Part shown: piece after piece, positions 15,334-44,717 of the stretch
How positions within the stretch are numbered: the first letter of the stretch is position 1
Layout: each line of letters begins with the position of its first letter
Origin: Hysterium pulicare CBS 123377
Taxonomy: Eukaryota > Ascomycota > Dothideomycetes > Hysteriales > Hysteriaceae
Assembly (NCBI GenBank): GCA_000467715.1
Contig: AJFK01000385.1
Coordinates: 113,380-177,379 of the forward strand
Reading direction: 5' to 3'
Length of the DNA stretch: 64,000 bases
Made by a program: the position numbers and the translations under genes
The notes under the pieces: generated by a model
Database searches by the model: none
The model's input: only the letters and a program-made list of their open reading frames with translations
What the model was told of the DNA's origin: nothing

Positions 15334-17082
15334 TTAGTCCTGTCTAGCTTTGCCTTTGGCTTTACGACTGATCGGCTTTGATTCCTTCTGCCCTGTCTTT
15401 CCCGTCTTTTGACGCTTGGGGGGAGGTGGGTGCGGGTCCGAGAGTGGATCACCATCTGAATCATCTGACACATCGCGGGCAGGTCCTGGATCGCCATCTT
15501 CAGGTGCTTCGGTGGAATCTGTAGGCAAGTTCTTCTGCAACCTGTCTTGCAGCTTTTCGAAGCCGCTGTAGAACTGATGCATTTCTGCCGTAGTATGATG
15601 CTGTGCGTATCTCAAAATCAAATCTTGTGTGGAACGCTCAACCCAGTTCCCGCCAACTTGGATGCCATTTGAAGCCAGACAGTCCAGTACGTCCGTCTCC
15701 GAAACGAACAAGATTATCCACATGAGTATCCAGCTCCCAGATCTTAGGAGGTATGGCGCAAATTCGATGATCTCCATGCAATCAGATCTACACTGCGCGA
15801 TGATCTGCCTCGACGAGAAGATTTGATCCGCTTGACCTGATCTAGCAGGAATAACATTTTCGAACATCCAGGCCAGTAAGTTGGGAAGGCCAACCAGGGG
15901 TCTTACTGGCTGTGACAACGCGTACTGTGGGTCAAGGATGCCCTTGAATCGGACAGTGAGGCCGTGATACGGAATAAGCCCGTCAGGACTTATTCCTCCA
16001 CTGTCAGAGTATTTGTAGTAGGCGGCTTGGATTGCAGTATAGGCGGAACGCCCCTCAGAGCTACGATTCTCGAACAGCTCCAAAGGATAGTCGCCGACAA
16101 AGATGTAGTCTTCCTCGTGAATGAACCGGATCCACGTTGTATCCATGTTGTCTTCCACAACTCTAACAATATCCTCGAAGAGATGCTGGAGGGCTTCTTC
16201 ATCGGGCTCATCTTCGTCGGGCTCATTTTCATCGGGCTCATTCTTATCCGCCATCTTTTCTGAGATTGCGTGAGTATTGGGCTGCGTCTCATTCTGATTA
16301 GGCTCTTTGTTGATTCCGGATTGTATCTTTTGCCCTGACTGATCATCCGGTTTTCCAACGTCCCATCGATTGGGTTTAGGCTCCGTCCCTGTTTTCTTTG
16401 CACCGGGTTTATTGCGTTTGCGATCTTCAGCCTCCTGATTGTCTTCGCTTTTGTTCCTTAGGTTGTTCGTGCTCAGCGAACCATTATTGTCTTCATCATT
16501 CGATTCAACCAGCTCTAGATACTCGTCCCAACCAGTCATTTTCGCCATTTTCTGATGCGTCTTGTCCCATGCCGCCTTGAGCTCGTTGAAGTTGGGGAGA
16601 GTTGTCTTTTTCTTGATATCCAGTTGAGTTTGCCAGCTTGGCTTCTCTTCGACGCAATATAATCTGACCTCCTGTCCAGCTCGTGTTCCATAAGCAGTGA
16701 TTCTAACGTCCACCTCATCATCTTCATCGTCGTCAGTTTCGGCTAACTCTGCATAATTGATCCAATCAGGATGCTCTGGAGGCGGATCTTTTTTCTTCGT
16801 TGCTTCCCATCTCTCATGGAGGGCCTTAAAGTTCTTGATTTTATCCTGTTCCTCCCAGATTCGCTTCTTTTCGAGACGGTACATCCAGCCCTTGTGGGTG
16901 TTCCGCCCCCCCTTTCTTCTAGCAGCGGTAAATCGAGCGAGAGGCGCCTCGGGATCCGGATGATTTTTAGGATTCGGAAGGGTTTCAACCTCAATTTTGT
17001 CTGGACTGCTAGGTTCTGCACGCGTCTTCTTAGCGTTGGCCTTCGTGGTGACCTGTCTAGATCCAGGTCGTGGCGGTGCCAT
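15334..17082 (-). CDS. Family gene B: two chromo-like N-modules plus helical C-module
   Basis: A single exon encodes 582 residues. Residues about 48-115 and 126-192 are two copies of one module. Each has a strand-rich start, a W-x(n)-N-F-x-x-L-x-x-x-W-[DE] helix and a terminal W-x-x-Y-x-E-L followed by acidic residues. Residues 280-296 are a 15-nt tandem acidic repeat (NEPDE three times, the last two diverged). Residues about 295-518 are the family C-module with EFAPYLL at 440-446, MWIILFV at 454-460 and LASNGIQVGGNW at 469-480. These align closely with gene A (QAPFML, LWIILII, LASDGIMIGESW). The tail (553-582) is a Pro and Lys/Arg run that reads as a bipartite nuclear import signal. There is no signal peptide. 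The function is unknown, and nuclear location is an inference. Gene A lies upstream on the same strand, 613 bp away, and is the closest relative. Confidence 0.9.
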   Translation of the reverse strand: MAPPRPGSRQVTTKANAKKTRAEPSSPDKIEVETLPNPKNHPDPEAPLARFTAARRKGGRNTHKGWMYRLEKKRIWEEQDKIKNFKALHERWEATKKKDPPPEHPDWINYAELAETDDDEDDEVDVRITAYGTRAGQEVRLYCVEEKPSWQTQLDIKKKTTLPNFNELKAAWDKTHQKMAKMTGWDEYLELVESNDEDNNGSLSTNNLRNKSEDNQEAEDRKRNKPGAKKTGTEPKPNRWDVGKPDDQSGQKIQSGINKEPNQNETQPNTHAISEKMADKNEPDENEPDEDEPDEEALQHLFEDIVRVVEDNMDTTWIRFIHEEDYIFVGDYPLELFENRSSEGRSAYTAIQAAYYKYSDSGGISPDGLIPYHGLTVRFKGILDPQYALSQPVRPLVGLPNLLAWMFENVIPARSGQADQIFSSRQIIAQCRSDCMEIIEFAPYLLRSGSWILMWIILFVSETDVLDCLASNGIQVGGNWVERSTQDLILRYAQHHTTAEMHQFYSGFEKLQDRLQKNLPTDSTEAPEDGDPGPARDVSDDSDGDPLSDPHPPPPKRQKTGKTGQKESKPISRKAKGKARQD

Positions 17083-17695
17083 GGTTGTGGTCCCTCACTT
17101 CCACAGAGCGTTGCCTGGCAGATTAAAGCCGACGCTTGAACGAGACGAGTGTAAGATGGAGGGTAATTGCTCGCACGGAGAAGAAAATATAAGTGTGCAA
17201 GCCGCACAAAGAACGGGTCGGCAAAAAGATCAAACCTTCTTTGGAGTCTTGTGGAGAGGACAGGATGTAACGCACCCAGTGTTTGTTTCCCGCAGAAACC
17301 CCGGGGAACGCCCATGATCACGGGGATAGCACATTTCCATGCATTACCAAGCATTGTCAAGCCAAGAACCAGACATTCTAAGGAAAACTCTTTTGTCTTC
17401 TCCCGTAGCACTACTTAGTAACGCCGGTATTGCAGTCGAACTTAGAATTTACCAGCCTTCCTCAAATGCAAGTGTGTCAACACATCCGAGCTCAAGGTTG
17501 CAATTGTCTATCAACCTATTGTCCAAAATCAAATTCTGAAAGATCTCCATACCACTCATTGAACAGTCTATCGTCTACCAACCAACGCATATCATCAAAC
17601 CAACTCCCATATTCCATGTCAAGCTTCATAAACCAAGCTAGCAACACCTGTCCTACTTTCCCAATCTGTTTCCTCCACTGACTACCCCTGCTCCG
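17083..17695. other. Intergenic region between genes A and B
   Basis: About 610 bp containing the promoter and 5' leader of gene B and the end of gene A. No other feature is supported. Confidence 0.5.
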
Positions 17696-19738
17696 TTACC
17701 TTCTACTGCTTCTGCCCTTCCCACTTCCAAGTCCCCTCACTCCAAACATCCCCCCAAACGGATTGCTCCTGTGAGTGTGGGTTTTGCTTGTATTTGTTGT
17801 TTTCCCAAACATACCTAGATTTGGCGTACGAGCTCTATTTGTCTGTGCCGGCTTGGGAAGAATGCCGGGGTTGGCACGCTTCGGTGCGGGTGTTTCATCT
17901 TCGGACGCTGGTGGATCGTCGTGGCCCCTCTTACGACTCTGGTCCTTCGGCGGCGCATGTTTGGGCAAGGGTGCCCTTTCTGGGCTGGGGTTGCCGCGAA
18001 GGGTTGGTTGCGTTTCTTCGGCTGCATCTCCAGAGTCTGACGGATTGGAAGGATTGGAGGGAATGAGGATGGGCTCATGATATCTGGCATAACCTCGCTT
18101 TCTACCATGCCTTTCCTCTCTACCACGACTCGAATCTTTGTCACGAACTGAGTCTTTGGTACGTCCTTGCTTTCTACCGCGATCCTGCTCTTTGGTCGAG
18201 GGGCGTCTGGATGATGATGGTTCGTGGGCTTTCTTGCCAGAGTAAATAGTTCCTTTCTGCGTTCCAACCCCGGATACCTTGCGGGAGTTCTCAGGCTCGA
18301 AATCGTCGTCTTCTACATCATCGCTCTCGTTATCACGCGGATTCTGAACGTTCTCATGGTTGCCGTTGATTTGGCTGTTCTCCTCGCTATCTTCATCATT
18401 GCTGTCGTCGTCCTCATCATTTCCATCATTCGGAGGCATGATTTCCTGGAAGAATCCTTGCAATCCATTGAAAGTTTCCTGAACATCTTCGATGGTTTGA
18501 CTGCCGCCCCCTCGTTCATTTGAAACTAAATACTCGCTCAGCATATCGTGGATGGAATCTTGGACCCACGACTCTCCAATCATGATGCCATCACTAGCGA
18601 GTGTGTTCCGGAGCTCATCCTCTGGAATGATAAGAATTATCCAAAGAAGTGCCCAACTGCTGTCATTGAGCATAAAAGGGGCTTGTCGAACGATTTTGTT
18701 GCATGCCTTTCCATGGTCCCTAAGTAGTTTCCTTCGGCCTGCTGATCGAAAGAAGGGGCCTGCATCAGTGGGGAAACCGAGGTTCAACATCCTGTTGATC
18801 ACTGTGGACATTTGGAAATCTATCCGGTCTTCCATCTGGTCTCCAGCCTCATGAGCTTTTCTGGCAGCTTCCCGATCAAGTTCGCCAACGTAGCGAATGA
18901 AGATGTCTTCGTAAGGGACGCGCCCTATCGTGGATTCAGAGTCGAGAAATTTTGTTTTACGAGGATCGTCGTACGCAAGAGTCATTGTTTTGTGTGCGTT
19001 CCGGACTGCCCATTGGTTTACAATCTCCATGCTGGCTGGCGTCAAGCTGTAGTCTGATCTTCCCATTATTTCGGGCGGTGGCAGTTGTACTTCTATAAGG
19101 TTGAGTATCTTGTCGAGCATGTCTTTCATATCTTGCTCTGGAACGCCCCTTCGCTCCTTGCGCTTCGGTGTCGTATTTCGAGCACGAATAGGCCTATCTT
19201 CGTCATCTGGGTGCTCTTCGGCTACTTCAGCTAGCGCGGCGGTGCCATTTCTGATGGGCCTGTTGCGAATAATGTTTCGTTTCGAGGCCTGTCTCTCCGG
19301 CTGCTTACGAACGTGATCAGACATTGCTTGCCGTTCAGCCCCGTTGTCACCACCCTGAGCTCGCACCCTGATATTGTTCTGCGCACTAGGCCTAGGACCT
19401 TCATTCCTCTCTCCCTCACGTTCCCTTCTCACTTGCTCTGCAGATTTTCCATCTTCCCACCCGTCCCCATCCTTCAGGTCCTTGTATTGATACCACGGCC
19501 ATGGGTGGCCACGCTCTTTGTCACGGCTTGTCCTTGGTGCCTTCTCATCGCGATCCCATCTCTTCTTCAATGCCACGAAGTTTGTTAGTTGCTCCTTGGT
19601 CGCGTAAGTGTCTGGCCATTCGACGAGATACTCCACTGGCCCATTTTTCGTGCGTCGCCCTTCGCCGATGATGCGATCGCCTATGAAGACCTTGTTGCTG
19701 GTTTGGGGGGCTTGGAACATGTCCTGTCGGGTGCCCAT
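17696..19738 (-). CDS. Family gene A: chromo-like N-module plus helical C-module
   Basis: A single exon encodes 680 residues. Residues 16-90 begin with VFIGDRIIGEG and EYLVEWPD, which match the first strands of a chromodomain (the Y-L-V-x-W core). An N-F-x-A-L-K-x-R-W-D helix and W-Y-x-Y-K-D-L follow, the same layout as the two modules of gene B. The usual chromodomain W-E-P segment is not evident, so chromo-like is the safest term. Residues about 200-435 are the C-module: an amphipathic start (DMLDKILNLIEV), RQAPFML at 351-357, LLWIILIIP at 364-372, then LASDGIMIGESW. The last 240 residues are acidic, then basic and Ser/Pro-rich with several Arg/Lys clusters. There is no signal peptide or membrane anchor; the Ile/Leu run is short and shared by all members, so it is probably a buried helix. 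The function is unknown. Confidence 0.9.
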   Translation of the reverse strand: MGTRQDMFQAPQTSNKVFIGDRIIGEGRRTKNGPVEYLVEWPDTYATKEQLTNFVALKKRWDRDEKAPRTSRDKERGHPWPWYQYKDLKDGDGWEDGKSAEQVRREREGERNEGPRPSAQNNIRVRAQGGDNGAERQAMSDHVRKQPERQASKRNIIRNRPIRNGTAALAEVAEEHPDDEDRPIRARNTTPKRKERRGVPEQDMKDMLDKILNLIEVQLPPPEIMGRSDYSLTPASMEIVNQWAVRNAHKTMTLAYDDPRKTKFLDSESTIGRVPYEDIFIRYVGELDREAARKAHEAGDQMEDRIDFQMSTVINRMLNLGFPTDAGPFFRSAGRRKLLRDHGKACNKIVRQAPFMLNDSSWALLWIILIIPEDELRNTLASDGIMIGESWVQDSIHDMLSEYLVSNERGGGSQTIEDVQETFNGLQGFFQEIMPPNDGNDEDDDSNDEDSEENSQINGNHENVQNPRDNESDDVEDDDFEPENSRKVSGVGTQKGTIYSGKKAHEPSSSRRPSTKEQDRGRKQGRTKDSVRDKDSSRGREERHGRKRGYARYHEPILIPSNPSNPSDSGDAAEETQPTLRGNPSPERAPLPKHAPPKDQSRKRGHDDPPASEDETPAPKRANPGILPKPAQTNRARTPNLGMFGKTTNTSKTHTHRSNPFGGMFGVRGLGSGKGRSSRR

Positions 19739-21854: not shown

Positions 21855-22364
21855 TCCCCCCGGGAGGGAGGGTTGAGCTCTGTACGGTATGCTCAACTCT
21901 CTATCCGTCCTGGTGAACGATAGCAAGAAGTAGACAAGAGATCTGCCTAGATTGGAGTCTACTGGAAAACAACACTCACTGAAACCTGCCTATACTGGTC
22001 TCTAAGTATATTTGGCTAACTTGTTGGTTAGATAAGGCAGTGGCATTTTTTTTGTTTTTTCTTGTTTCGGTACGTATAAATATTTCCTTTCACCCTTCTA
22101 AACCATCCTTTCTATTTCCCCGACAGCAATCTCATCAATTGTTTCCTCCGCCTTTTCTTGGCGGGTATGAACATTTTGTCATGTGCTTGCCAAATATGGT
22201 TAGCGCTCGGTTACGCGAACGTGAATGTCGAACCTCGAAAACCTTTCTAACATGACTTCCCCCTCCAGACTTTTCTCCGCCTCCACCAACAACCCCTACA
22301 CAGGCTTCTATCGACACCACGCCTGCGCCTATCTGTTTCCTAGACATTCCCATCGATTTCTATC

Positions 22365-23706
22365 ATGAATTCATCAATTCCGCCTCAATTTCCCGCTCTT
22401 CTCGGCCAGCAGGGGCCTTTGGCTCCCGCAGCACGAACTCTCAACGGAACACAGTCCTCTCAGCGTAAGTTGGACTCACAAATATAATGAGTGCGGATGC
22501 TCACTCACGCTTTGCTTAGAGCATCCCTCTGTGGCATTTGACGATCTCTATAAGGACCATTTCACCAAGCTAGTGGACGCAGCCAATTCTCAACAAACCA
22601 CGCTCCCGCGGCGCGACCGCAAAAGACTCATCAAACAGGCACATGATTCCGCAGACAAGATCTTCTACCCAAATCAATCCGTCCTCGGCCCATATGAACG
22701 TCAGCAACGTGCTTTGACCAAAGTATTTTATCATGTCCTGGCAGACGAACCTTGGTCGGAAGAGTGGATCCGCGCGCCAGACGTGGAGCGAAAGCTATCT
22801 CGTTATGAATTCCACCCAGACTCCCTCGAATTGGCTCAGAAACATGGTTTTGCTAGCCCCAAAGACGCTGTCATCGCCGCCCGTAACGAGCTTGAAGAGA
22901 TCTCATCGAAGGCAAATATCACAGATAAAACCACTGCAAATTCGTCCACCGCTGCCGGAAAAGCCCCCGCTACTACTACTACTGGCGTACCTTTCGACAA
23001 CATCGATATCATCTACATTCCAGGAACCGTGAGCTCCGAGGCTACCAATTCCATCAATCGGCAGGAGATCTACCCAATCAGTGTCGAGTCCATCGCATAC
23101 CAACTACACAGTCACATATGCAGACCAGGCCCCCAAAAGCTACGACCATACGAGCTGGCATCTGAGTTCATCCATACCGATAACGTAGCCACGCTCCTCA
23201 GATACCGAAGTTTTGCTTGCGACGTCTGCGATTTCGCACCCCACCTCCTCGATAACGACAACATCAGCCTCCTAGTCATTCTCCTTATCCTCGGCCGTTC
23301 AGAGATCTGCAAGCGCTTCGAAGAAAACGGCATCCGAATCGAAGGATCAACCATGAGCCACAGGAAGTCCGAATGCATGAAGCACGCCATGGGTTGGAAG
23401 ACTCAGGAAGACAAATGGGGCTACGATTCTACCGCCAACGAGATACAGAAGAAGATCAAGCTGGCGCTCCACCCGAACGGCAAGCCTAAGGGCCCTCGGA
23501 AACCCCGCAAATCGACTACGAATTCAGCTACGAACGGTACTCCGAAGCGCCCATCGATCAACGGTAATGGTATCGCAGGAAGCAGCCTTGGAGGAGGCGT
23601 TGTTAATGCAAACAGTGTTCGTACAGGCAGCATTGGAGGAGGTACCGTCGCAGGGCCTAGCGTTCGAACTGGTAGTATCGGAGGCGGCGAGCCCATGCAG
23701 ATGTGA
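22365..23706 (+). CDS. Family gene C: C-module protein with Gly/Ser repeat tail
   Basis: Exon 1 (22365-22464) starts MNSSIPPQFPALL. A 55-nt intron (22465-22519, GTAAGT to TGCTTAG) follows, and exon 2 (22520-23706) completes 428 residues. The join restores a glutamine codon and keeps frame, so the ATG at 22365 is preferred over any in exon 2. Residues about 40-170 are a helical, charged region not seen in the other members. The C-module then follows with QLHSHICRPG in place of the usual HP motif, CDFAPHLLDND as the APHL motif, SLLVILLIL, and EENGIRIEG, which matches ASNGIQVGG of gene B. The tail is Lys/Pro/Arg-rich and ends with SVRTGSIGGG twice. No signal peptide is seen. The function is unknown. 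Confidence 0.87.
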
Positions 23707-25960: not shown

Positions 25961-27469
25961 AGTTCGCACGGGACTCACCAATCCTCCTCTCGACGATCAC
26001 GGTTGGGGGCAACTTGGGGTTGGCAGTGACGGTGCATTCGAGTTCAAAAATTGAGAGCAGGTGGTGATTCTTTCAACTCTTGAGAAGTAGGATGCTAACT
26101 TTCGTATAGAAATACCTATTCCTATCGTCATAGGGTGGCCGAGACTTGATAGCCTACGAACAGACTGCTTTCAGAACACCTGGTTGTTTCCTTCCCCATC
26201 CCCTCCCAGGCTTACCAGACTGGCGCAAACTCTACTCCACCAAGTATACAAACGATTGTCAGCGAACAGCCTACCCATAATTTTCAGATTCGACCGGCGC
26301 AATTGGATCCCTCAAAATATTTACACCAAGCTCGTGGCAGTGGAGGAAGAAGGGGGAAAATTTTCAAGGGGGCTTCTAAGTGGCTGTTCAAGATGTTCAA
26401 GCAGACCGGCAAATAACCTTGACCCTACCGGTTGGAATCAAAAGAAGATTATGGGGTGTATTCGCTTAGGTATCTGGAGGAGGCCATTTGTACTGAAGTC
26501 ATCGAGATAGGTTTTTTTCTTGTTCCTGTAAAGAGATTCCTAGGCCCCATAACCAGAACCTATGGTGACACAGATGTTGGGTTGAGCTCCCTTTGACTCG
26601 GTAGATTAGGATCATCGTCTATACGGTCATTTTACTCAAGAGTTCTCTATTACCAGGGACTAACTTGAATTTTACTCCACGCTGTACCGCTTCGTCATCT
26701 CGCTAGCCTCTATGGACTGAGCAGTGACATTTCATTCTTCGAACCCAGTATATTTGGATACATGAGAGAATCAAGTTTGATTTCTTATCCTTCCTTCATA
26801 GGAGGAATGGTGGTTATATATACATCTTTCTGTGGGTTCATCCTCTAGAAATTACATCATGAAGGACTGTACCCACTGTCTACCTGCGATAGATTTCCAA
26901 CACAGTAGCCCTATTTTGCTCTCACAAGTAGCGCATGACGCTTGTGAATTACTCCTAAAATCTCAGGGATTACGTCGTCGTCGAAGGGTTAGAATCCTAC
27001 GCCGTCAGTTGAAACCAGGGGTATGAACGTTGCTAGGGGTATAATTGAATCTAGCCTAAGGAAGACCTCGGAGGAAAAGTATGAATAAGTATGCCGGTGT
27101 CGTAGAACCTAAATTGACAAATATATTGTGCCCCAGCTCAAATTGTGATAAGTTGGCGGTATAGATTTCCAGCCTGTCACTGGACTTAACCGGTGTCTGG
27201 ACAAGCTAAGCTTAATTCTAGAAATGCGTAGAGGAGTCTCTCGTCCCCCATCCTCCCAAGCCCTACAATTGAAACGTTTAGACGCCTCACCTGACGCTTA
27301 GAGCACTATTGGCTTGCACAGTAGCTTTTCCAAGTCGGTATATACTTAACCATTTGCATAGAGAAGCGCCAGCACTGTACGTCCCTCGGCAGTAATAAGC
27401 AACTGTCTTTGTTACAGACTCATCGGACCTAGTTGGGGGGCAGCTCCATCATATTCGCCCGCTCAGTTC
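25961..27469. other. Gene-free stretch upstream of gene D
   Basis: About 1.5 kb of moderately AT-rich sequence. Short frames (108 codons at 26184, 64 at 26832) carry no recognisable motif. The last 150 bp before 27470 are likely promoter of gene D. Confidence 0.4.
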
Positions 27470-27785
27470 TCACCACCCTTTAACCCCCGCGACGCGCCCA
27501 AAGCCTTGCAACAACACACCATCTTCACTTGTTGACACCCCAAACGACACCACATCCTCGACCCTTTTCTTTGACCAGCGCCCCACAATACTTATACTTA
27601 CTTCTCGAAGGGCAATCCGGTCATCGAACGCTCACTCGTCACCCCCCTTTACCTCCCGCTACGCGTCTACCGCGCTGCCACCAAAGCAATCTTCATTTCC
27701 TGTGTGCACAAACAACATCAAATCTTCAAGGCTTTTCATTATTCGGTGCACCACAACACTTCCACATACTTCTCGAAAGATCTCA
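27470..27785 (+). repeat. Duplicated leader of gene D, about 168-bp period
   Basis: The segment at 27470-27610 recurs, diverged, at 27638-27785. Matching blocks are ACCCCCGCGACGCG with ACCTCCCGCTACGCG, AATCTTCATTTCCTG with CATCTTCACTTGTTG, and ACAATACTTATACTTACTTCTCGAAG with its partner ending CATACTTCTCGAAAG. The second copy ends just before the start codon of gene D. Confidence 0.7.
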
Positions 27786-27795: not shown

Positions 27796-28971
27796 ATGGA
27801 GAAGACAGCTGCTTCAGAGCGTCCCCAGCGCAATGCGACCAAGAAAACCTACACCGAAAAAGCGCCTCCGCGAGCTTCTTCATCACACAAAGCTACCGTA
27901 CCCAGAATCGTCATCACTGATACCGCACTAGCGTCGCCAGCCACAACATCCACTCATCGTAATGCTTCATCAATCCCGGACCAAGAAGCTCATGCTCGAG
28001 CATCAGACTCCCTCCTCATGCCTCCTCCAGCCACCAAAGGCAAAGAAAAAGCGGTTCAGGCTGACGACTTCACTGACGATTTTAGCGAAATCACCGGCAT
28101 CATCCACGAGACTCCAACTACATGGAGAGTCCAATGGACTCCTACGGATGTCATCAAGCCAGGGCCCAAGGAAAGAGCTTCCGAACAGGTCACCGAAACT
28201 GCCCTCTCATACTGGAATAACGAAAAATTGATGGGTCGGGTTGTTCGAAATGAGGGCGGAGAGTGGGAACCAGTAGAGCAATTCCTCGAGCCTGATGCTG
28301 ACGACATTCTTGCAACATTGGAATGCATCTTCGAGATGGGCCATCAGAATAAGGACTGGAATCTGGAGCATATCCCTGACGGTACTTATGCGTGGCCTGC
28401 AAACTCCTCCCGTCGAGTCGGCGTCACTCCCAGAAGAGTCATCAATCCTAAATATGCCATCTACGAGGCCCTCAGAGTTCTCCTCAGGGGCGGACCGAAG
28501 CATAACGAACACCTCATATACACCCCTGCCGAAAACGAAGCCTATCAAACCACCACTTTCGGCCTCGTGAAAGCTCTCCAAAACCACCCCTTCAAATACG
28601 AGCACACCTCGCTGGAGGCCGCCTCCTTCTACCTGAACGAGGCTATGGATCAGGACTACCTGGATCTCTTCGCCAAATGCCGCGCTTTGCTGAAGTACGC
28701 GCCACACCTCCACGTCGCCAGCTCGGCGACAAATGTGCTTGCTGTTTTGGTCCTCACGAAGGAAGATATTCGGGAGGTACAGGGGGAAGGCGTGACGGAT
28801 GAGAAGGTGCAACTCTGGAAGAGCCTTGCGGTGCGCTGGTTTTGCCAGCAGCTGAGAGAGATGGAGGCGGATGAGGAGATCATCCGTGGTGTGCGAAGCA
28901 CCATGATTGCCCTTGCCGCCGTGCTCCAGAGGAGCGTGGGAAGAGCGAGGAGGGCTGCTGGGAGGGAGTAG
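27796..28971 (+). CDS. Family gene D: chromo-like N-module plus C-module
   Basis: A single exon encodes 391 residues from the ATG at 27796. The frame stays open upstream to 27529 but has no ATG there. Residues 1-90 are Ser/Thr/Ala-rich and disordered. Residues about 97-165 are an N-module: EITGIIHE, TWRVQWTPTD (chromo-like Y/R-V-x-W core), a helix, then GRVVRNEGGEWEPVEQFLEP, which aligns with gene E. The C-module starts DDILATLECIFE, has the W at 188, LQNHPFKYEHTSLEAASFYL at 261-280 and KYAPHLHV at 300-307. A variant hydrophobic run (NVLAVLVLTKEDI) replaces the Leu-rich helix. The C-terminus is basic. No signal peptide is seen. It converges on gene E, whose coding remnant ends about 260 bp downstream on the other strand. 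Confidence 0.87.
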   Translation: MEKTAASERPQRNATKKTYTEKAPPRASSSHKATVPRIVITDTALASPATTSTHRNASSIPDQEAHARASDSLLMPPPATKGKEKAVQADDFTDDFSEITGIIHETPTTWRVQWTPTDVIKPGPKERASEQVTETALSYWNNEKLMGRVVRNEGGEWEPVEQFLEPDADDILATLECIFEMGHQNKDWNLEHIPDGTYAWPANSSRRVGVTPRRVINPKYAIYEALRVLLRGGPKHNEHLIYTPAENEAYQTTTFGLVKALQNHPFKYEHTSLEAASFYLNEAMDQDYLDLFAKCRALLKYAPHLHVASSATNVLAVLVLTKEDIREVQGEGVTDEKVQLWKSLAVRWFCQQLREMEADEEIIRGVRSTMIALAAVLQRSVGRARRAAGRE

Positions 28972-29228: not shown

Positions 29229-29965
29229 TCAGAGCTTGTATTGAAGTAGATTCTTAGAAACCTTTTCCTCATACATCCTTTGCAGGCTCATCGAAGCCTC
29301 CTTCACAGTCACAGCCGCTCCCGCTTCGACGTTCCTCAAGATATAACATCTCTATGGACGCTATAAAGCCGGAGATATTCTGGACCCCATCCACGGTTCC
29401 CTATCATCCACTTGAGCAAATTTTCCAACAGATCGTGAGATTTAGGGATGGTGTTGGAAGCTTCGGCCACCTTGATGCTTCCAGACAAGGACGCTGTACC
29501 CCCAGCAAGTTTCTGTGCATCCTCTTCCACCGCTCGCTGCTCGTCATCCGCCTTAACAACATTTCCAGCTCCTTCAGCATCCTCATCAAAGCCGGAAGCG
29601 GTCGCCGCAAGAGCCTCCTCGGATCCAGGGTCCGGATATTGGTCATCGAAGTAGTGGGACGTATGTTGCAGTGGATCACTCGTAGTGCTACTCGGCATCC
29701 CTTCAATTTCAATAATCTCGTACATAGATCTCAGACCGTTCCTGATCGTGGCATCGACCCAACGACCGTCCTGTAGAATTCTTCCCTGAAATGTCAGTCC
29801 AGCGGCTATGGCGTCGTTGAACTTCTTCTGATGTTCTTCCAATGGTGAATCAGTCCATTCGGGGTGCCAGTCCATGAGCGATTCATCTGCGGTTTGGGCA
29901 AGAATACCTCTGGCAATATATTGGTAGGTTTTGGGTTTCGCTTTCCCTTTTCTTTGGGGTCCCAT
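29229..29965 (-). CDS. Family gene E: truncated or frameshifted member
   Basis: The open frame from the ATG at 29965 encodes 209 residues and stops at 29336. Residues about 14-95 are an N-module (YIARGILAQT, W-H-P-E-W, then GRILQDGRWVDATIRNGL) that aligns with genes D and F. An acidic linker follows, then the first helix of the C-module (LLENLLKWMIGNRGWGPEYL), and the frame stops a few residues later. A second frame continues immediately (29343-29229) for 37 codons reading ILRNVEAGAAVTVKEASMSL, which matches the HP-helix of genes G and H. The APHL-Leu core is absent on either strand up to gene D. So the C-module has lost its middle and its end. Either the short protein is used as is, or this is a young pseudogene. 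The break lies where genes G and H carry an intron. Confidence 0.65.
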
Positions 29966-30538: not shown

Positions 30539-31760
30539 CTATCCGGATTCCACTCTGCCTTGTAAGAATTCGGCTAAATCATCGAAGGTCCATCGAATCT
30601 CTTCGAGATCCTGCGTGCATTGAAAGGTATCCATATAATCTTCCAGCTTTTGAACTTTCCGAGCCTCCAATTCTTCCTCGTCCAGGGTTCTGTCATGGTG
30701 CTTTAATGTTCGAAGTATTGTGCTCGTGGGTATAAGAAGCAAAAGAAGTAGTAGTGACGGGTTCTGCTTATTATCGTTGAACATGTGCGGGGCCGCTAAA
30801 CGAGCCAACCCGCTGAAGGTCTTATATCGCTCCATCAAAGCCTTGTCTGGCTTTGCCTTGCAAAGCTTTCTCACTTCATCCTCCGGATTTTCGCATTTTC
30901 GAAGCGGGTGAGCCATCATCGTTGTCGCGATGCTCCGGATCTCCACAGTGTTTCCAAGATCACCCTTGCCGTTAGCGTATCCGACTCGAAGACCTCGGCA
31001 GTATTCGATTATGCGATTATCGACTGTGCTTGGTAACGTCTCGCCCGAGTCTTTCATGAAAAGCATTGTGACTGTCGACGTTGGACTTAAATCGACCGTG
31101 GTAGGGGGGGTGGGAGGATTGCCTAAGGGCGTATAAACGTAACCCAAATCATTTCCTTGAATCCTGGAAAAGCGGATGTGACTTTGAGCATCCCAACCTG
31201 CCTGGTCGATGTTCATCTTCAGAACGTTATGAAGTAACTCCACCATGTCTTTCGACATTTCACCTCCCGATCTTGTCGATATCAGAGCACTGTTGAGTTT
31301 AAGCTGGGTGTTATGGAGGACAGCCGAAGGTTCGATGTTGGTGGACGCGGTTTGCATGAGCCTATTTGATTTTCGAGCAGAAGGAGGTGGTGGATTCAGG
31401 GTGTCTAGCCTCAGCGTGTTAAGAAATTATTGAAGAAGAATGATTTACATAACACGTACCATCTCCCTGCGCGGATTCAACTGTTTTCGGCGCTTTGCCC
31501 TTGCCCTTTCCCACCTCCTGCATGTGGTGTTCGTACCCCTCTCGAACCTCAGCTTCGCCCCAATGATTGTCTTTGGATATGACCATCCTAGTTGTCTTGC
31601 CCTGTTCGTAGGTCCTCTTCCACTCTTGAATAAACTCATCAGGGGCCTGGAGGTGCTCTAACCATCCACTATGAAGCCTGTAATAATACCCTTTATCCTG
31701 CGCGATGATGATATCGCCCGAAGGAAGCCGGGGGATGCGAGTTGCTGTAACCAAGGCCAT
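30539..31760 (-). CDS. Family gene F: N-module plus C-module, two exons
   Basis: Exon 1 (31760-31460) and exon 2 (31404-30539) are joined across a 55-nt intron with a GTACGT donor and GGCTAG acceptor, giving 388 residues. Residues 10-80 are an N-module (PSGDIIIAQDKGYYYRL, W-L-E-H, EFIQEWKRTYEQG, then DNHWGEAEVREGY) that aligns with gene E. A Lys-rich linker follows and carries the intron. The C-module starts with MVELLHNVLKMNIDQAGW. It has MMAHPLRKCENPEDE from about 263, LARLAAPHMFND near 300-311, and SLLLLLLLIP at 317-326. It ends with WTFDDLAEFLQG, the same ending as gene I (FWDLGNFLQG). There is no signal peptide; the Leu run lies deep in a conserved domain, so I do not read it as a membrane anchor. 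The function is unknown. Confidence 0.88.
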
Positions 31761-32298
31761 CTCGCGGAAACTTCTTGTGATGCTAAGCAGGGGAAGACTT
31801 AGTGGAACTGAATATAGAATTCAAGCAGGAGGACTTATACATACAAGATGCTTGAAGACTGAGTAGGAAAGAGAGCGTTGGGAGCGAGCAGAGAGCCACA
31901 ACGCGTTCGCTTGTGATAAGCGTGGACCACATTCACTCTACACGTGACAAGGAAAGCGAGTGACGTAATTAGAGCTATCACAAACCAATTAATGAGTTGA
32001 AAGATACCGCAGCTACCAGAAGCTTACTAGAAACTCGATTATGCTGACTAAGTTACAGGAATCATTGTGGCCAAACAGCTCAGGGATCATACGTCAAACC
32101 AGCAGGTTAAGAAGGCTGAATAGTCTTAGTCAGCAAAAGATTCTATATAGTCTAGAGTCACGAGGAGTAGTGCTGGTGACTTTTTCTATTCTACTATCAT
32201 TGAGTATCTACAATTACAGAAGCCTCATTATTTCCACAAGGCTGGAAAAGCCAATTATCATCGCTCGCGCCGCCCAATCCGTCTCCACCCCCCTCCTC
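31761..32298. other. Intergenic region between genes F and G
   Basis: About 540 bp containing the promoter of gene F (a CACGTG lies near 31940) and the 3' end of gene G. The stretch around 32000-32230 is AT-rich without recognisable content. Confidence 0.45.
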
Positions 32299-34322
32299 CT
32301 ACGTCGTATCCCCTTCCTGGAAGAGGGGAACGAGGGCCTCGAAATCCTCCTCTGTAATCGGGGCCTGGCCCATCTTTCTGCTGCAGCGCTGCAGCAATCC
32401 ACGTTTCTCTTCCCCAATCATCTCCGCAGACGTCTCCACACCCTCGTTGTTCAACGCCTTTACCAGGCCACTGACTGGAGAAAAGAGGAGCACCAACAAG
32501 AGCGAGAAGCTCTTGTCTAGGCAGAGGTGAGGTGTATGCTGAGGCGCCGCAAAGGCCCAGGCTCGGTATCGTGCCTGTAACGGAGGGCTGCCCTCTTTGC
32601 CCAGCAGGGCGGAAGCCTCTTGAACGGGATCGGTGATTGTTGCAGCAGGATGTGTGTTGAGGGTCTCTACCAGTTTTGCTACGATGATAGTTGGCCGAGG
32701 GTAACCAGACATGTCGTCCCTATGCTTGCCGGAATACTGAACTCGGATGCTGGCCCAGGCGGGATCTTCAGGTTCTTCCTGGCATTCGGTGATCAGGGGC
32801 TTTGCATCGTCCCTGCTTCCCACCCCGAAATAGTCGATGTATCTGTAAATAGTATTAGTCGCGGTTTGCTCACGGCATGAATATTGATGAATCTGGACGG
32901 GACATACTCTGGGTTCTTTTTGGTGGGGCATATATAACGTAGTGTCCATTCTTTTTGCTTCATGATAGCGCCGAGGATGGCACTCAAGACCCTCTTATTT
33001 CCCTCCAGATGCCCCTTACGGGTCGTGATATCCCACGTGATGGGAGTCTTCCCGAAGGTCGGCGTAGGCGCAGCTAATGGACGAGGCACCGCGTTAGGTA
33101 TTGCTAGAGGTGGTATAGCCTGTCTGGCTGGGGCTTTAATGGGTATTGTGAATGATGTTGTACTGGGGCGAGGTCCGGGGTGCGCGTTCTGTTTGTTTGT
33201 CTGTCGCTTTCTCGTAGCTAGTACTTGCTTCCGGCTAAGTCGTTCCAATTCGTTCCGAATGGAATCATCATGAGGGTCAGGCTGACTGAGCGGGTCGTAT
33301 TCTAGGCGTTTGATCTGTCTCATGACCATTTGAACCGCCAAAGATGATTGAGAGTCAACCGCGGACTCAATTTGTGGGTTCTTTGGCGCCGTGCGAGTCT
33401 TCTTTGCTGCTTTTATTTCGCTGGTATTTGAAGGCAATGATCGCTTTGCGCCTAGCTTGTCTTGCCTGGGAACAGGAGCAGTATGAGTCGTAGTTTCCTC
33501 GATTATGCCAGAGGATTGATTGGTATTTGCAGTGCCCTCCTGAGGCTTAGCCGCCGTAAGTGCTGTCTGCCGAGCCACTATAGTTGCAGGGGGAGTCGCC
33601 CCAGAAGCCGCTGCCGCGGATGTAGGTGCCATTGTAACCGCAGTGGCGGGAGTGACATCATCAACGTTTCGGTAAATATTCTTGTGATGTACCTCTAAGT
33701 ACTTCGTCGGTGTGTGTAGTGCAGTTCCGGTTAGAGTGGCCAGGTTGTAGGTGGGAAGTTTTGCTCGCGTGCTGCGAATCTCGCGCTGGGACGTCACTGG
33801 TGCTACAGGTGTCGGTGCTGAAGCTGGTGTGGAAGAGGTTGGCGCCACGGTCGCTGACTGAGGGTGTACTGGTGAGGGAGTACTGTTCTGAGCCTTGTTT
33901 GAGCTCTCATTCAGCTTTGGGAGCGGAAAGTATGACTGGTTTTGCAGATTTGGGATGGAGCTTGACACCGTGGGTTGGAGGGAGCCAAGGCGTGAGAAGT
34001 GTCCAGCCAACGTGCTGGCGGTCTGGGCGAACTTTCGATATTCAGCGGGGGTGTAGGGTTGGTCTGGGAGAATAGCTTGGATGCCCTCTAGAGCTCGTTT
34101 AGTTCTACCATCCATCGTGACGCCGAATTGGCGGTCTCCAGACTCCTCGGAGTCATCATCGTCCGAGAACATTGGATCGGTGTCGTTGATGGAGGAGTGC
34201 GGCTGGTTGTTGGAGAGGTACGGGTTCATGATGAGGGGATAGTATCTAGCCAGAAAACTGGGATGCGGAGGTGAAGGTGGCTGTTGAAGGTCGGTTAGTG
34301 TTGCATTGAGAGAATGTGGCAA
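32299..34322 (-). CDS. Family gene G: long disordered N-terminus plus C-module
   Basis: Exon 1 (from 34322 or, more likely, the second ATG at 34229, to 32908) and exon 2 (32842-32299) flank a 65-nt intron (GTATGT donor, GACTAATAC branch, TTTACAG acceptor). The product is 652 or 621 residues. The region before the second ATG is pyrimidine-rich like a leader, so the shorter form is preferred. The first two thirds are Pro/Ala/Thr/Ser-rich with basic clusters and no N-module that I can see. The C-module opens with VLSAILGAIMKQKEW. It has LNTHPAATITDPVQEASALL, then HTPHLCLD, SFSLLLVLLFSP and NNEGVETSAEM, and ends 25 residues later. The intron falls just after the first helix of the C-module, the same place as in gene H, which argues that G and H are sisters. 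Confidence 0.85.
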
Positions 34323-34737: not shown

Positions 34738-34790
34738 TCATCTAGAGACTTCCCAGGCTCTCTTATACCCGCATCTATCCCCAAGCCGTC

Positions 34791-35917
34791 TCAGAGATCA
34801 TTGTTCCAGACCCTGTTCTGGATAGCCTTCTCCAGCTTCTCGAACACTTCCGTACAGTCCTCACCAGCCCAATACTTCTCGCTGAAGCGCAGAAGCGCGA
34901 TATCCCTTCCATGAATCAAGTAGTTTGACGAGATGCCAAAATACATAGCCCGACACTGTTGGACAATGTCTCTGTATGGTCGAAGAAGGAGAACCAATAA
35001 CAGGGTCTCGTTGCTGGGTTTGAGGAGATGTGGAGCGTCGTATGGGATTATCCTGGCGAAGTCCTTGTACCTCTTGATGAGAGCGATATCTTTTGGGGTA
35101 GCTCGTTCGGTATCAAGAGCCAGGAGGCTGCTGGCTTCGGCTTCGGAGTCTTCCATTTGGCGGACCGGGTGTGATGCAAGAGCTTCCGCTAGACTGCCAA
35201 CTATGATTGGGGGTCGATACTCGCGCATCTGTTCATAGCCATTGTAAACAACCGAGACACGGTTGAACCGGATGCCGTATGTCTCCACTGCTTCTCCGTG
35301 AAGCTCGGTGTTGTAGGCAGAGTTAATTAAATTCTTAGCCGATTCGACAGACCCTTGCTGTACCCCTTTCTTCGTGATCCTGCCGTTAGGAGGGAAGGAA
35401 TAGTCGTCGTCACTGTTGTCCGTCAATACATGCGCAATTAAACAGGGTATTATCTCATCACATACAGGATAGGATCTTCGCCCGTCGGTTCCCAAGACTT
35501 TTGCGACTGAACGGCTTGAAGGATGCAGGAAAGCAAGGTCTGGAAGTCTTGGAAATCCTCCCGACTGTAACGAATATTGTGGAGCACACGGGCATCCATC
35601 CTTGGGACGGATCCTGGTTGGCCATGTTCTGGAGTCGTGTGCGCAACTGATGCGCAAATTCCACACGCATCTTTTGCCCTCCTCTTAATAGTGTTTGGTG
35701 GATTGGTATTATGAGGGGCCGGCATAGGGTGGGTATTTCCGACTTGTTCAGAGGCAGGGTCAACCCCTTCAACGCCCTGTTGTGTTTCCTTGGAATTGAT
35801 AGTATTGGAAGTTTCGATGTCCATTGGCGTAACCTCGTCACTCGGATGCTCCGGACTCATTTTAGTATCCCTCGTCACGTTAGAGAATCGAGACACTGGA
35901 TAGATGACGCTAGACAT
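34791..35917 (-). CDS. Family gene H: disordered N-terminus plus C-module
   Basis: Exon 1 (35917-35466, starting MSSVIYPVSRFSN) and exon 2 (35412-34791) are separated by a 53-nt intron with a GTATGT donor and ACAACAG acceptor, giving 357 residues. The frame is open further upstream to 36076 and the next ATG is MSPEHPSDE, so the exact start is open. Residues 1-110 are low-complexity. The C-module opens with FQTLLSCILQAVQSQKSW, interrupted by the intron. It then carries IVGSLAEALASHPVRQMEDS, EAEASSLL, RYKDFARIIPYDAPHLL and NETLLLVLLLRPYRDIV, the clearest example of the HP and APHL-Leu motifs in the window. It ends FEKLEKAIQNRVW. The intron is placed as in gene G. The function is unknown. Confidence 0.86.
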
Positions 35918-37030
35918 TGTATCTACGAGGAGGGGGTAGGTTTTAAATTTTTCAGCGTTTGTGTGAAGGTGCCTGACAACAAAACAAAACATTAGCAAAA
36001 AAGAAGAAATTGATGGTAAATGAGGCCAAACATGGCTCATCCCGCAAATCTGTCCAAATGGATAGCCAGACAACATGAACTGGAAAACCTACCTGTCTCT
36101 TTCGTGCGTGTTTGCTCGGTTGATCGCCGTGGGTTTCCGGCGATGTGTGTGAGATAGAATCGCACTTGGATGAAATTTGAAGTCAAGAGTATGTATCCGA
36201 ATGAGTCGGCGAAGATTGTGCGTCGGAGGGTTACGCGTTGACGAAGAATGGGAGGGAGACTGGAGGAGGCTGAGAAGGCGGCGGGAGTGCAGCTGGTGAC
36301 TTTGCTATTGATTGTCCGCCGAAAAGCGACGAGGCGAATCTTAGAAACGAATTTCAGTGAAGAAGCCCCAACTAAGCTGCTAGTAACTTAGACGGGAGTT
36401 GCGTCATGTGAAGGAAGGAGTTTGTTATTCACGGCGGTCGGTAATATCCGGGCTTGATGGTAAATTGGCCGCAGGACACTCATTGGATCATTAAGTTACT
36501 GTTGATGACTTCATGAAAGCAACATCTTAGTTGCAACAATTTTCACGGGTGTCATGGCCGCAATCCGCGCAGTGTCACGGTTTAACGCAAGAAAAAGGCA
36601 CTTAGGGGGCAGACATGTATTCTGGTATTTGTGGAGCCAGATACTTGGCAATCAATTATCATGGTAATGCATACCTATGAAGACTGCATAAGCCATCTTG
36701 GCTCGCTAGTTGTGCCTGAAGGCTATGAACTTCGTCAGTGACTCGGTGGAAATACTGCACTGTCACAATGTTTCAAAACGAAGTGCGATAGCTGGAGCAC
36801 ATAAACCGAGAAGGGTCATAAGAGTATACCATATTCCAGAAAGCTGGAACCCCTTTCCACAGTCGGTAACGTTCGGTTTGTCATGTTTGCTGTTATGACA
36901 TATACCCAAAACAGGTGCACCACGCAGCATAAGTTCTCTTGGCAGCGGACCCACGGGCCATTACATCATACCACCACAAAATTTATCGCTCTATGTGCTC
37001 TGGTTCAACTATATAATTAATTAATTTAAG
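35918..37030. other. Gene-free stretch upstream of gene H
   Basis: It contains the promoter and leader of gene H and about 700 bp in which I see no gene or repeat. The final 30 bp hold the TATA box of the U6 gene. Confidence 0.45.
37010..37017 (+). promoter_or_regulatory. TATA box of the U6 gene
   Basis: TATATAAT 25-30 bp upstream of the inferred U6 start, the normal position for a Pol III TATA element. Confidence 0.65.
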
Positions 37031-37035
37031 CAGTT

Positions 37036-37140: not shown

Positions 37141-37146
37141 GTTGAT

Positions 37147-37157: not shown

Positions 37158-37159
37158 TC

Positions 37160-40100: not shown

Positions 40101-43100
40101 TGAGATTCGAAAGTTGTGGTATAGAGACAATGGCGAGGGAGAGGAAAACGGCGTTTTTATCGTGTTCCACTACAACATGCTCATTATAAAACCTCAGGCA
40201 TATTACCTTCTCGATTGAGCATCGCAGCATCGCAGCATCCCAGTGCGTTGTTAAGATGGTCTATCTTTCAATTTGGGATTTATGCCTGTCGAAATGTCAT
40301 CATCATCTAGTGCCACCGTTTATGACCCAATCCTTATTCAAGAAAACTTGAGCGACACCTTCCGCGGGCGTGGCTGAAGAATTCGTCTCGCAAAAGGAAA
40401 AAGTGCTGCGTTTATCTTCTCTAGAAATACGGCGAGGAGGTGGGTAGCGGATGTCGCCCGGCGTCGGTAAAAGCCTAGGGGATGCGATTATGGTATAATC
40501 AAGTGGTCCGGAATGATTTAGCAGATTTGAAGACGATTTGGGGGTACAAATGGATGCGTGGCAGGGAGATGGATGTGGAAGCAGCGATAACTTCGAGAAC
40601 GCGGCAGCGAAAGGAGTATTGGAATAGGCATCGCGAGAAGAGTGGCGATATCTTAGGACATGGAATATATGAGACGGGGCAAATAGATGCACTCTGCTCT
40701 TCGGACGAGGATGGTGTCCAGATAAACGGTGGAGTTGATGTTCTACTTGAGAGGCCTCAGCAGTTTTTCGTGTCCTCCACCAAGCTGGAGCTAGATTCAG
40801 ACGCATTAGCCGCCTACCCCAGGGCTATCAGCCACCACAATTACATTCTCCTCCCGGCTAGATCTCCGACCCTGGGGGGTAATTTTGGAATTTTTCCCCG
40901 GCAGCTGTCACTTTCCCTTCAGCATCGCCAACGTGGTGCGCGATTGATGTTGAACAATTTAGGAAAATTTCAGGGCAAACCTGTGCCTGTAGGCATACCG
41001 AAACACCCTACAGTCTGCACCATGTCGCACCCATACACAATTGCGCCCCCTACCTTCGCTCTGAAGCGCTTGAGTCCATCTCTGGTGTCATCGACCAGCA
41101 GTGCGACACTGTGTTACATTTCAATGAAATCCTTGCAATTCCTGGAAACAGTATCTACAAGCAAGAAATTGTTTCCCAAGACTTAACAGCAATTGTTATT
41201 CGATACTATGCAGTACTGCTTCCTAGGAGAATACCCCCCGACCATTCCTATCGCCTAGATTTCTCAATCATCCTCGCACTGAACGCAAAGAGAAGACGGA
41301 TACACACAGCAAGTGGATTGACAGATACGGGCCGAATGATACTAGATTCGGAAGATCATGGTTGATGGAGAAGTATAGGAAGATAAGAATACGAAAGGAG
41401 TACGATTGGCTTCAGATCTCCTTAGGTCCTGCATCAGCCCTCACTGCTCCTTCGAAATCAGTCAATTTGAGTTCGGAATAGGATCCAGCCAAAGCGAGCC
41501 CTTCAGCAAACTATCCAGTCCCTAACCTTCTACAAGGCCGGGACGTGTTCAAACCCACGTCGTTCATCGCTTCGATAAGGGTTACAACACAGGCGCCGCC
41601 TCCGCCTGGTCCTCAATTCGGATTCGGATTTCCGCACGCACACATTGCTCGTCAACCTATGTCATCGTAGACGCCTTCGCATTTTTCGTAGAAGACGGAG
41701 GGACAACAATGCGGTTCTGTGCGGGTGTGCAAGTTACAGGCACGCTCGGCTTCCTTTGGTCCATCACCCACTCGATTCATGCGAGCATAACACTGCAATG
41801 CAAATTTCGAATTTACCAGTACACATACGCAGCCTAGAGAGTAGCAGAACAAACTCCAGGGGAGGGAATCCATGTGGTTCGAGAGTCTTCACTAGCGACA
41901 CACCGAAGCCGGAGTCAATTATATCAAGCTCCCAGATTCCATTCCTAGTAGGAATTCAGAGTAAGGCCAATGATGGGTTGAATACAAATTAGGACGTTGT
42001 ATACCCGAGGAGGCGCGTTTCTCGCTCAGTTGTCCTCCTTGGGAGGATGTTTATTCGTGCTAACAAAAGGCAAAGGAGACAATGGACGCATCCAGACGAG
42101 CGGTATCAATTGCTACCAACCTACTGCACACGAGGAAGTTGCCCGATAGCGACGCAAGATCATACAAGACCTACACCACACCCCATACCTTATACGCAGC
42201 CCACCGTCGGATATTTCGAGACGAGTCATCACTCAGGCTACAAAGGTCTGCAGAATACCGAGGGGGTAATACTGAGAGGACTAATTTGGCACGATGATAC
42301 CCTGTGAGGATGGGGAGCAGTTCAAGATGGATCATGGTTTGACAATGCTAAAAGCTTAAGAGACCCTTGGTACGACAGCGATAGGAAGGCGGCTTTGGCC
42401 GGTCTCCCTTCCACATGTCTAAAAGCTGAAGCCTGGATATACTGATGCAGATAAGCTGGTAGATGCAGCTTAAGAAAAAGAGCACGACAGTGACCTCGGC
42501 GTCTAAAGGTCTAGTAAGTTATCCTGGCTTCAAGATAGTATCGATTCAAATTGTTCTAACTTGTCCCGGTAGGTATTACCGAATAAGAACTTTGACGCTT
42601 CCAATTTTATCAATGTTTGTCACGAGCAGGTGTGGTCAGGCATGCCGATATTCTGACAAAAAATTGTCACGAGTAGTACCTTAATCCTAATGTCCGCCAC
42701 CAATCTCAGGAAATCGGTAACGGCAACCTTGATTGAACAGGCCGACCATCACTTGGCAACGCAAAGCTGATAACCACTACCGGACAATGTGATAAGTCCT
42801 GTTGTGCATCCGGCAAAATGAGCCGTTGTTCTTTTTACGTTGAAGGCTGGCTAACCGATTGCATTAGATTAGAGTCCACCATATACGTGCTAGGAACTCC
42901 AGTCCAGAAGCATATGGAATATCATTCAGATCCTCTTCACGTCCCCGTTATTACAATGGCACATCCTTCTACTATGCTCCTTGCTTCTCAACAATCAATC
43001 GAGCATCAAAGAAAACTCCTTGTTCCCGGATATAATGCGTGATCCAACTTGCCGCCACGTTTACGGAACTGTCGGTCGTGGAATCCCTTGGTAATCCATG

Positions 43101-43771
43101 TAGAGAAGTAACTTGTGCTGATTCTGCATCAGGTCTGAATTTTGAATTTTTCAGAAGAATAGACTTCCGGACGCAGTGGAGTTATGTGGTGGATGCGTTG
43201 CTTTAGGAGGAGATTCGTTTCGAATCAAAATGGTCCTATGTAGCGGTATAGGGGTAGTACGATTTATCTTATGAAAGGAGGAACATTATATTATTATATT
43301 TGTGATAGCTAAACTCTTCGCGGCATCACTAAAGTTACACACCGTTCGAGAGGATTAAGTTAGAGCTTGAATTTAAAAAGGCAGACGCTTTGAAAATACA
43401 AGGAACAAGTTTCTGATTCTTTATTATAGACTTTCCCTCGCTGATGCCAGGAAATTGTGCGCACGTCATCTGTCACGTGATTGAGTTCTTGCGGTGTTTA
43501 TCCAAACGGGGGCGCGCTACATCCTCCTTTGTGCAAGCAGCCCATTTGTCTCGCTCTTCGTCCCTAGCATTCATCACACGGTTGCCTTCGCTCTCCAAAC
43601 TACCCAACATTCTGATCATTCTCTATCAAGCAAAACACATTTCCTGCCAGCAACCGTGATCGCTATTCGACAGTGCGAGTTTCCGAAGCCCCAGTCCTCT
43701 ACTCAGATCTCGTCCGCGCGCGTGGTGCTTACCTGCGTCTACATCCTTGCTCGTCGACAGAAGTTTTCCTT
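37160..43771. other. Gene-poor stretch of 6.6 kb
   Basis: Frames of 60-234 codons exist on both strands but overlap each other, have inconsistent composition and show no motif that I recognise. Two places look slightly more coding: 40482-40810 plus, and 41060-41365 plus with HFNEILAIPGNSIYKQEIVS. Neither has a credible start, intron or partner. An imperfect hairpin lies at 38300-38330. I see no transposon protein. Confidence 0.4.
38300..38330. repeat. Imperfect 14-bp inverted repeat
   Basis: CGTGGTGTAGGACC, loop GAA, GGTCCGACGCCACG; 12 of 14 positions pair. No gene is attached. Confidence 0.7.
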
Positions 43772-43824
43772 GTAAGTATGCATCCTTCCCTAAAGTTATA
43801 CAAGAGACTAACCTGATACTCTAG
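43772..43824 (+). other. 5' UTR intron of gene I
   Basis: GTAAGT donor, GACTAACC branch point and ACTCTAG acceptor, 53 nt, ending 50 bp before the ATG of gene I. Reading frames upstream do not join in frame to the coding sequence, so it is placed in the leader. Confidence 0.65.
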
Positions 43825-43874
43825 CTACGTTCCTCTACCTCGACTCCAGAGAGCGTTCCCGCGAAACTGCCCAA

Positions 43875-44717
43875 ATGGAACTTGATCTAGCCCTCAGGTC
43901 GGCCCGCCACAAGGTCCTGACACGCATCTTCGAGCTCGCAAATGCCATCGATAGAACTCCTTGGAGGACCCGCCCAGGGCTATCAAACTACAGCAAGGAT
44001 GAGCCAGAGATCACCCAGGTCTACCACTGCGACGCTGCCGGCAACTGGGTGTTATCCGACTACTATAGACCAAACTGTATCGTGATGGACTTGATTACGG
44101 GATGCACCCTGCAAGTGTTAGGTATGCGTGACGGGCACCCGTGTCACATATCCGACGACACGTCAGAAGTTCGATACCACTTCTCAAACGGCGATACTGT
44201 AACCATGCCGGAAAGCCGAATCACCCACTCCATGGTCAATCATCCTCTAAGCCTAGCGACCCCCACCATAACCCCTTCACAGGCGGCAATAGCTCTTATA
44301 CATGCTATGGAGCAATTCCCCGAGCGGACGAGTCAGCATTATCTTATTTGGCTTTTGAATTGCTTCAATGGGGCTCCTCATTTGGGATGGGATATTCGAG
44401 ATCCTCGAGACATCACAATCGCATTTGCCATTCTCATCATACCGAATTTCAGAGGGGATCCCGGCGGCTTTGACCGTTATACTCCACAAGAGCTAGACAA
44501 GATCATCACAACTGCTATGGAGTGGTTAGCGACGAAGTTTCCGGAGCTGGAGCGGGAGGTAGCCTTAAAGGCCTTCTGGGACCTTGGCAACTTCTTACAA
44601 GGTCACACACACCCATTTGACTTCATGCCTGCTACCGACGTCCAGCTCATCGATTCTTCCTATGCTATGGTTCCGGAATGGGCGGCTTTGGTGGGTGAGG
44701 TTGTGTTGGATGATTGA
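43875..44717 (+). CDS. Family gene I: minimal member, C-module alone
   Basis: A single coding exon encodes 280 residues. The start is the first ATG after the leader intron. The whole protein aligns with the C-module of the other members. It opens with RHKVLTRIFELANAIDRTPW, the helix-plus-Trp opening, and has SMVNHPLSLATP at 119-130 followed by QAAIALIHAM. FNGAPHLGWD lies at 164-173, a shortened hydrophobic run with AFAILIIP at 183-190, and FWDLGNFLQG at 234-243. The hydrophobic helix is less Leu-rich than in genes F and H. There is no N-module, no low-complexity arm and no signal peptide. It lies 8 kb from gene H and on the other strand. It marks the limits of the C-module at about 240 residues and suggests that the module folds by itself. 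Confidence 0.86.
   Translation: MELDLALRSARHKVLTRIFELANAIDRTPWRTRPGLSNYSKDEPEITQVYHCDAAGNWVLSDYYRPNCIVMDLITGCTLQVLGMRDGHPCHISDDTSEVRYHFSNGDTVTMPESRITHSMVNHPLSLATPTITPSQAAIALIHAMEQFPERTSQHYLIWLLNCFNGAPHLGWDIRDPRDITIAFAILIIPNFRGDPGGFDRYTPQELDKIITTAMEWLATKFPELEREVALKAFWDLGNFLQGHTHPFDFMPATDVQLIDSSYAMVPEWAALVGEVVLDD

What the first reader, a model, noticed from the sequence alone, without database searches (positions are those of the whole stretch)
15334..44717. A nine-member local gene family with an unrecognised C-terminal module
Genes A, B, C, D, E, F, G, H and I share one module: an amphipathic start helix ending in Trp, an L-x-x-H-P motif followed by a helix with E-A-x-x-L, then A-P-H-L, a run of Leu/Ile/Val ending in P or E, and a closing helix. 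Order and spacing are kept although identity between distant members is low (only A and B are close). I know of no named family with this pattern. A cluster of nine divergent copies with variable N-termini within 30 kb looks like an actively diversifying system.
Basis: partly seen in the sequence, partly recalled or inferred. Interest (0 to 1): 0.87.

Follow-up and report, generated by a model that had tools for sequence, protein, structure and literature searches.

The report
Old local family of fungal genes
A stretch of a fungal genome carries eight distantly related neighbouring genes, plus one shortened possible relative, that share a helical protein module absent from the libraries searched; the family is real but looks old rather than freshly diversifying, and its job is unknown.

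Summary
Eight of the nine genes (A, B, C, D, F, G, H, I) carry one homologous C-terminal module of about 200 residues. Leave-one-out profiles recover 7 of 8 at E 3e-6 to 1e-19. I is recovered only weakly: E 2.4 with the full module, but 0 of 5000 shuffles reach its core score. E lacks the module core. The quoted motifs are looser than claimed, and A/B are not the only close pair (G/H 33%).

No Pfam match reaches its cut-off. AlphaFold2 gives a mainly helical domain (F: pTM 0.69); Foldseek finds nothing better than E 0.14. Fungal proteomes could not be searched, so 'uncatalogued' means only in the libraries used here.

'Actively diversifying' is not supported: no DNA similarity between copies at E 1e-3, third codon positions least and second most conserved. 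Best reading: an old, locally duplicated family of intracellular, probably non-enzymatic proteins with a conserved helical binding module and variable N-termini. The function is inferred, not shown.

The parts
15334..17082 (-). gene A, 582 aa, single ORF; module at 15514-16197; two copies of a small Trp/Tyr N-terminal domain at 16729-16947 and 16495-16710
   Evidence: ORF; leave-one-out E 2.4e-13; N-domain alignment
17696..19738 (-). gene B, 680 aa, single ORF; module at 18422-19138; one N-terminal small domain at 19460-19696
   Evidence: ORF; leave-one-out E 1.4e-16; model
22365..23706 (+). gene C, ATG 22365, putative intron 22465-22519 (GTAAGT donor; other acceptors possible), module 22696-23490
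   Evidence: gene model; leave-one-out E 1.2e-16
27796..28971 (+). gene D, 391 aa, single ORF, module 28288-28953
   Evidence: ORF; leave-one-out E 2.9e-6
29336..29965 (-). gene E, 209 aa ORF: N-terminal part and a first-helix-like stretch only, no module core
   Evidence: ORF; score not significant; hhalign P 0.0084 over 22 columns
30539..31760 (-). gene F, putative intron 31405-31459 (GTACGT, no branch point found, alternatives exist), module 30542-31264 in one ORF
   Evidence: leave-one-out E 7.3e-18; AlphaFold2 model
32299..34229 (-). gene G, putative intron 32843-32907 (GTATGT, phase 2; other acceptors possible), module spans the intron
   Evidence: leave-one-out E 5.1e-15
34791..36076 (-). 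gene H, putative intron 35380-35465 (GTATGT, phase 2, just after the Trp helix as in G), module spans the intron; true start codon uncertain
   Evidence: leave-one-out E 1.2e-19
43875..44717 (+). gene I, 280 aa, single ORF, the most divergent member, module 43887-44624
   Evidence: ORF; full module E 2.4, core 9.1 bits with 0 of 5000 shuffles at or above

Best explanation
An old family of paralogous genes, duplicated locally on both strands in an ascomycete-like fungal genome. Each full member has a variable N-terminal part (by eye often charged or low in complexity) and a conserved, mainly helical C-terminal module: in the model of F a first helix ending at the Trp, a beta hairpin and eight helical segments, one of them the Leu/Ile/Val run. 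I infer that the module is a non-catalytic binding or dimerisation unit, and that the proteins act inside the cell as adaptors, some perhaps in the nucleus, with specificity carried by the N-termini. Shown here: homology of eight modules (I weakly), one predicted helix order in two members, old divergence, no known relative in the libraries searched. Inferred: intracellular location, binding role, division of labour.
For: Leave-one-out recovery of 7 of 8 and core shuffle test, 8 of 8. Putative intron of the same phase and donor just after the Trp helix in G and H. Model of F with pTM 0.69 and 146 of 241 residues at pLDDT 70 or more; B model with the same core helix order, 123 of 136 aligned core residues agreeing on helix or not, 0 of 135 circular shifts as good. 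Second codon positions most conserved, third least. No match between copies at DNA level. Basic runs by a simple pattern in 5 of the 9 genes (A, B, C, G, H), a weak sign of nuclear location. No enzyme family above its cut-off.
Against: No function was tested. The two models share alignment rows, so their agreement is not independent; the B model is poor overall (pTM 0.39) and lacks the beta hairpin. D, E, F and I have no basic run by the pattern used. No localisation or signal-peptide program was run. An enzyme of an undescribed kind is not excluded. I is near the noise with full-length profiles. The tree is mostly unresolved.
Confidence: 0.5

Rival explanations
1. A recognition system under diversifying or balancing selection, such as heterokaryon incompatibility or genome defence, with variable N-termini sensing different partners.
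For: Many divergent neighbours, variable N-termini, one gene without the module core.
Against: No HET, NACHT or NB-ARC match in the Pfam scans of the nine genes. Divergence looks old and constrained. No population data.
Confidence: 0.15
2. A family descended from a transposon protein, for example a domesticated Gag-like helical domain, spread locally.
For: Helical bundle. Ty1 p22 Gag CA-CTD is in the Foldseek list of the B model (E 2.4, prob 0.12), which is not significant. A 98-base dispersed repeat overlaps the 3' end of gene G.
Against: No reverse transcriptase, integrase or capsid match in the 30 ORFs scanned. The other copy of that repeat (10609-10706) is not beside a family gene, and no repeat found pairs the ends of two copies. 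Putative introns in C, G and H.
Confidence: 0.08
3. Secreted or host-directed effectors in a fast-evolving genome compartment.
For: Local, divergent family without a named domain.
Against: By eye the N-termini are charged or polar; H alone starts with a hydrophobic stretch and its start is uncertain. No signal-peptide program was run.
Confidence: 0.1
4. The similarity is a chance or compositional pattern (short helices, Leu runs) read by eye.
For: The literal motifs are met by only some members; I is inside the decoy range with full-length profiles.
Against: Seven of eight recovered at E 3e-6 or better and far above the decoys.
Confidence: 0.02

Closest known systems
Lineage-specific, locally duplicated gene families of filamentous fungi (general kind, recalled, from no call)
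   Same: Clustered, divergent paralogues without a named domain; one shortened copy.
   Different: Shares a distinct module that none of the libraries searched here holds; the copies are old.
Polycomb-like MTF2 C-terminal domain (Pfam PF14061), for the small N-terminal domain of B
   Same: A 15-residue stretch matches: E 0.0017, 19 bits with the N-domain alone, E 0.023 with the whole protein.
   Different: Below Pfam's cut-off of 27 bits, one of six N-domain segments, 15 of 48 model positions; B's N-terminus is modelled as helices at low confidence.
Ty1 p22 restriction factor / Gag CA-CTD
   Same: Small helical bundle from a fungus; listed by Foldseek for the B model.
   Different: E 2.4, probability 0.12: no evidence of relation.

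Membership tests
   7 of 8 at E 3e-6 or better; I fails there and passes only the core shuffle test, narrowly
   No significant score; 22-residue helix only
   F and B models agree in core helix order but share alignment rows, and F's hairpin is not in the B model; the other members were not modelled
Known Pfam family | score above gathering cut-off | tested here: not met
   nine genes scanned as ORFs (F, G, H as two ORFs each) and eight modules
Chromodomain (for the N-terminal part of A, B, D, E, F) | match to chromodomain families or solved chromodomains, or predicted chromo fold | tested here: not met
   no chromodomain in Pfam scans of six N-domain segments at E 10 nor of the ORFs at E 5, nor in a PDB profile search built from A and B segments only; B's N-terminus modelled at low confidence
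Actively diversifying system | recent copies, positive or balancing selection | tested here: inconclusive
   no recent copies found, old constrained divergence; selection within the species not testable here
Heterokaryon-incompatibility / NLR gene | HET, NACHT, NB-ARC or similar Pfam domain | tested here: not met
   no such match in the nine genes

The most novel reading that the evidence does not exclude
The module is a new, uncatalogued protein fold that founds a fungus-specific recognition or chromatin-associated system, in which a conserved helical core couples interchangeable N-terminal readers to a common partner.
Probability: 0.12. Interest if true: 0.7.

Novelty: new member of a known kind. 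Interest (0 to 1): 0.38.

Why it matters
If no fungal database names it, this is a domain family worth a Pfam entry, with eight divergent natural variants in one place, a good base for an alignment and a structure. It would matter more if copy number or sequence varies between strains.

Tried and rejected
Chromodomain reading of the N-termini: I suspected it by eye from B (YLVEW...); Pfam, a PDB profile search and the B model gave no support. A leave-one-out test of the N-domain against 2100 shuffles supports the second copy in A and the one in B; A's first copy lies inside the shuffle range (12.6 against 13.8 bits), and D, E, F and the 45711-46196 ORF are not recovered.

RIP-type mutation as a source of divergence: TpA/ApT is 0.53 to 0.82 and (CpA+TpG)/(ApC+GpT) 1.08 to 1.33 over 16 blocks, not in the RIP range as I recall it. 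Transposon origin: see rivals. Relatives elsewhere: bacterial/archaeal genomes (2 scans: B; H second exon), IMG/VR (3 scans: B, C module, H second exon) and plasmids (B) gave none; these collections are not fungal, so this says little. Phage and E. coli collections were not searched. One NCBIfam match of one of 8 modules (ribulose-1-phosphate aldolase, E 0.0045; two weaker ones at 0.074 and 0.8) was set aside as chance. Papers: four keyword searches, of which I saw listings and abstract starts only; nothing on this family was seen, and no paper was opened. These searches cannot show that it is not in print.

Full report
What is there. The window looks like an ascomycete fungus (ORF structure, short candidate introns with GTATGT/GTAAGT donors). 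The species was not identified and no genome is held. The low end of A and the end of I match the finding's start and end exactly. Gene models with introns (C, F, G, H) rest on splice consensus only; alternatives exist.

Is the shared module real? Yes for eight genes, with I the weakest. I cut the C-terminal modules of A, B, C, D, F, G, H, I, built a profile from seven, and searched the eighth together with 940 six-frame ORFs of the window, and separately 2008 shuffled or reversed decoys. Seven of eight came back at E 2.9e-6 to 1.2e-19 (Z = 10000). I did not (E 2.4, 6.8 bits, best decoy 7.6). On the core alone, each of the eight scored above all its 5000 shuffles (3260 to 4454 of the 5000 were reported with a score); the margin for I is thin, 9.1 against 8.8 bits, E 0.061 at Z = 1000. 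A scan of the whole window in six frames, stops masked, with the eight-member profile finds these eight places; nothing else stands above the best score of the reversed-window control, 2.8 bits. E is not among them; its last 33 residues contain a helix like the module's first, after which the ORF ends. I therefore count eight members and one possible shortened relative. Plain blastp links 11 of 28 module pairs at E 0.001 or better, none with D or I.

How exact are the motifs? By eye on the sequences, the strict patterns hold in 2 to 4 of 8 members; a relaxed [AT]P[HYF][LM] and an aliphatic run are in all eight. G and H are the closest pair (33%), and share a putative intron of phase 2 with a GTATGT donor just after the Trp helix.

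Fold. AlphaFold2 on the F module with the eight-row alignment gives pTM 0.69, mean pLDDT 67.8; residues 23-90 are below pLDDT 50, the rest is a first helix, a beta hairpin and eight helical segments. The B model is weaker (pTM 0.39, mean pLDDT 50.7) and lacks the hairpin, but its core shows the same order of helices: 123 of 136 aligned core residues agree on helix or not, and none of 135 circular shifts does as well. The two models share rows, so this is consistency, not independent proof. Foldseek: best PDB match E 0.53 for F and 1.0 for B; best viral model E 0.14 for F; B was not compared with the viral library.

Known families. No Pfam match reaches its cut-off in the nine genes, scanned as unspliced ORFs, or in the eight modules. 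PDB sequences: nothing at E 10 for B alone, best E 1.2 for the module profile. Prokaryotic-genome, viral-contig and plasmid searches with some members were empty, as expected for a fungal family. So 'uncatalogued in Pfam as held' is shown; 'unknown' is not.

Age and selection. A blastn self-comparison of the window lists no match between two copies. Over 3894 aligned codon pairs, identity is 0.367, 0.458 and 0.306 at positions 1, 2, 3: third positions are the least conserved, second positions the most. I did not compute a chance level or dN/dS. The tree supports only A+B (1 of 5 inner branches). This is the picture of old duplications under constraint, not of a burst. It does not exclude present selection within the species.

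N-termini. A carries two copies and B one copy of a small domain with the pattern Y-x-[VL]-E ... NFxxLxxxW ... WxxYxxL. Leave-one-out supports the second copy in A and the one in B (15.1 and 16.7 bits against best shuffles of 11.1 and 11.0), the first copy in A is inside the shuffle range, and D, E, F are not recovered. I first took these for chromodomains; the tests did not bear that out.

Mechanism. The most likely reading is a set of intracellular adaptor-like proteins: a conserved helical binding core and variable N-termini. That is inference from anatomy. I give it about even odds because no function was tested.

Noticed in passing
59604-60722 (-) and 61760-62530 (-): A second local pair of unknown genes sharing a 56-residue stretch at 39% identity (E 6e-10), by eye ending near a G-x-NPSYP motif; no Pfam match.
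   Followed up: partly
16495-16710, 16729-16947, 19460-19696: A small Trp/Tyr-rich N-terminal domain, two copies in A and one in B, without a convincing known relative.
   Followed up: partly
27460-27609 and 27629-27777: A direct duplication of about 150 bases (70% identical) just upstream of the start codon of gene D.
   Followed up: no
10609-10706 and 32215-32312: A dispersed inverted repeat of about 98 bases, 77% identical; one copy overlaps the last bases of gene G and runs beyond its 3' end.
   Followed up: no
54045-54140 and 54175-54271: A local direct duplication of about 97 bases, 77% identical.
   Followed up: no
12690-13937 (-): A major facilitator superfamily transporter gene flanks the cluster on the left (PF07690 E 2.6e-24 on one ORF, above cut-off; 8.9e-7 on the next, below cut-off).
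   Followed up: no
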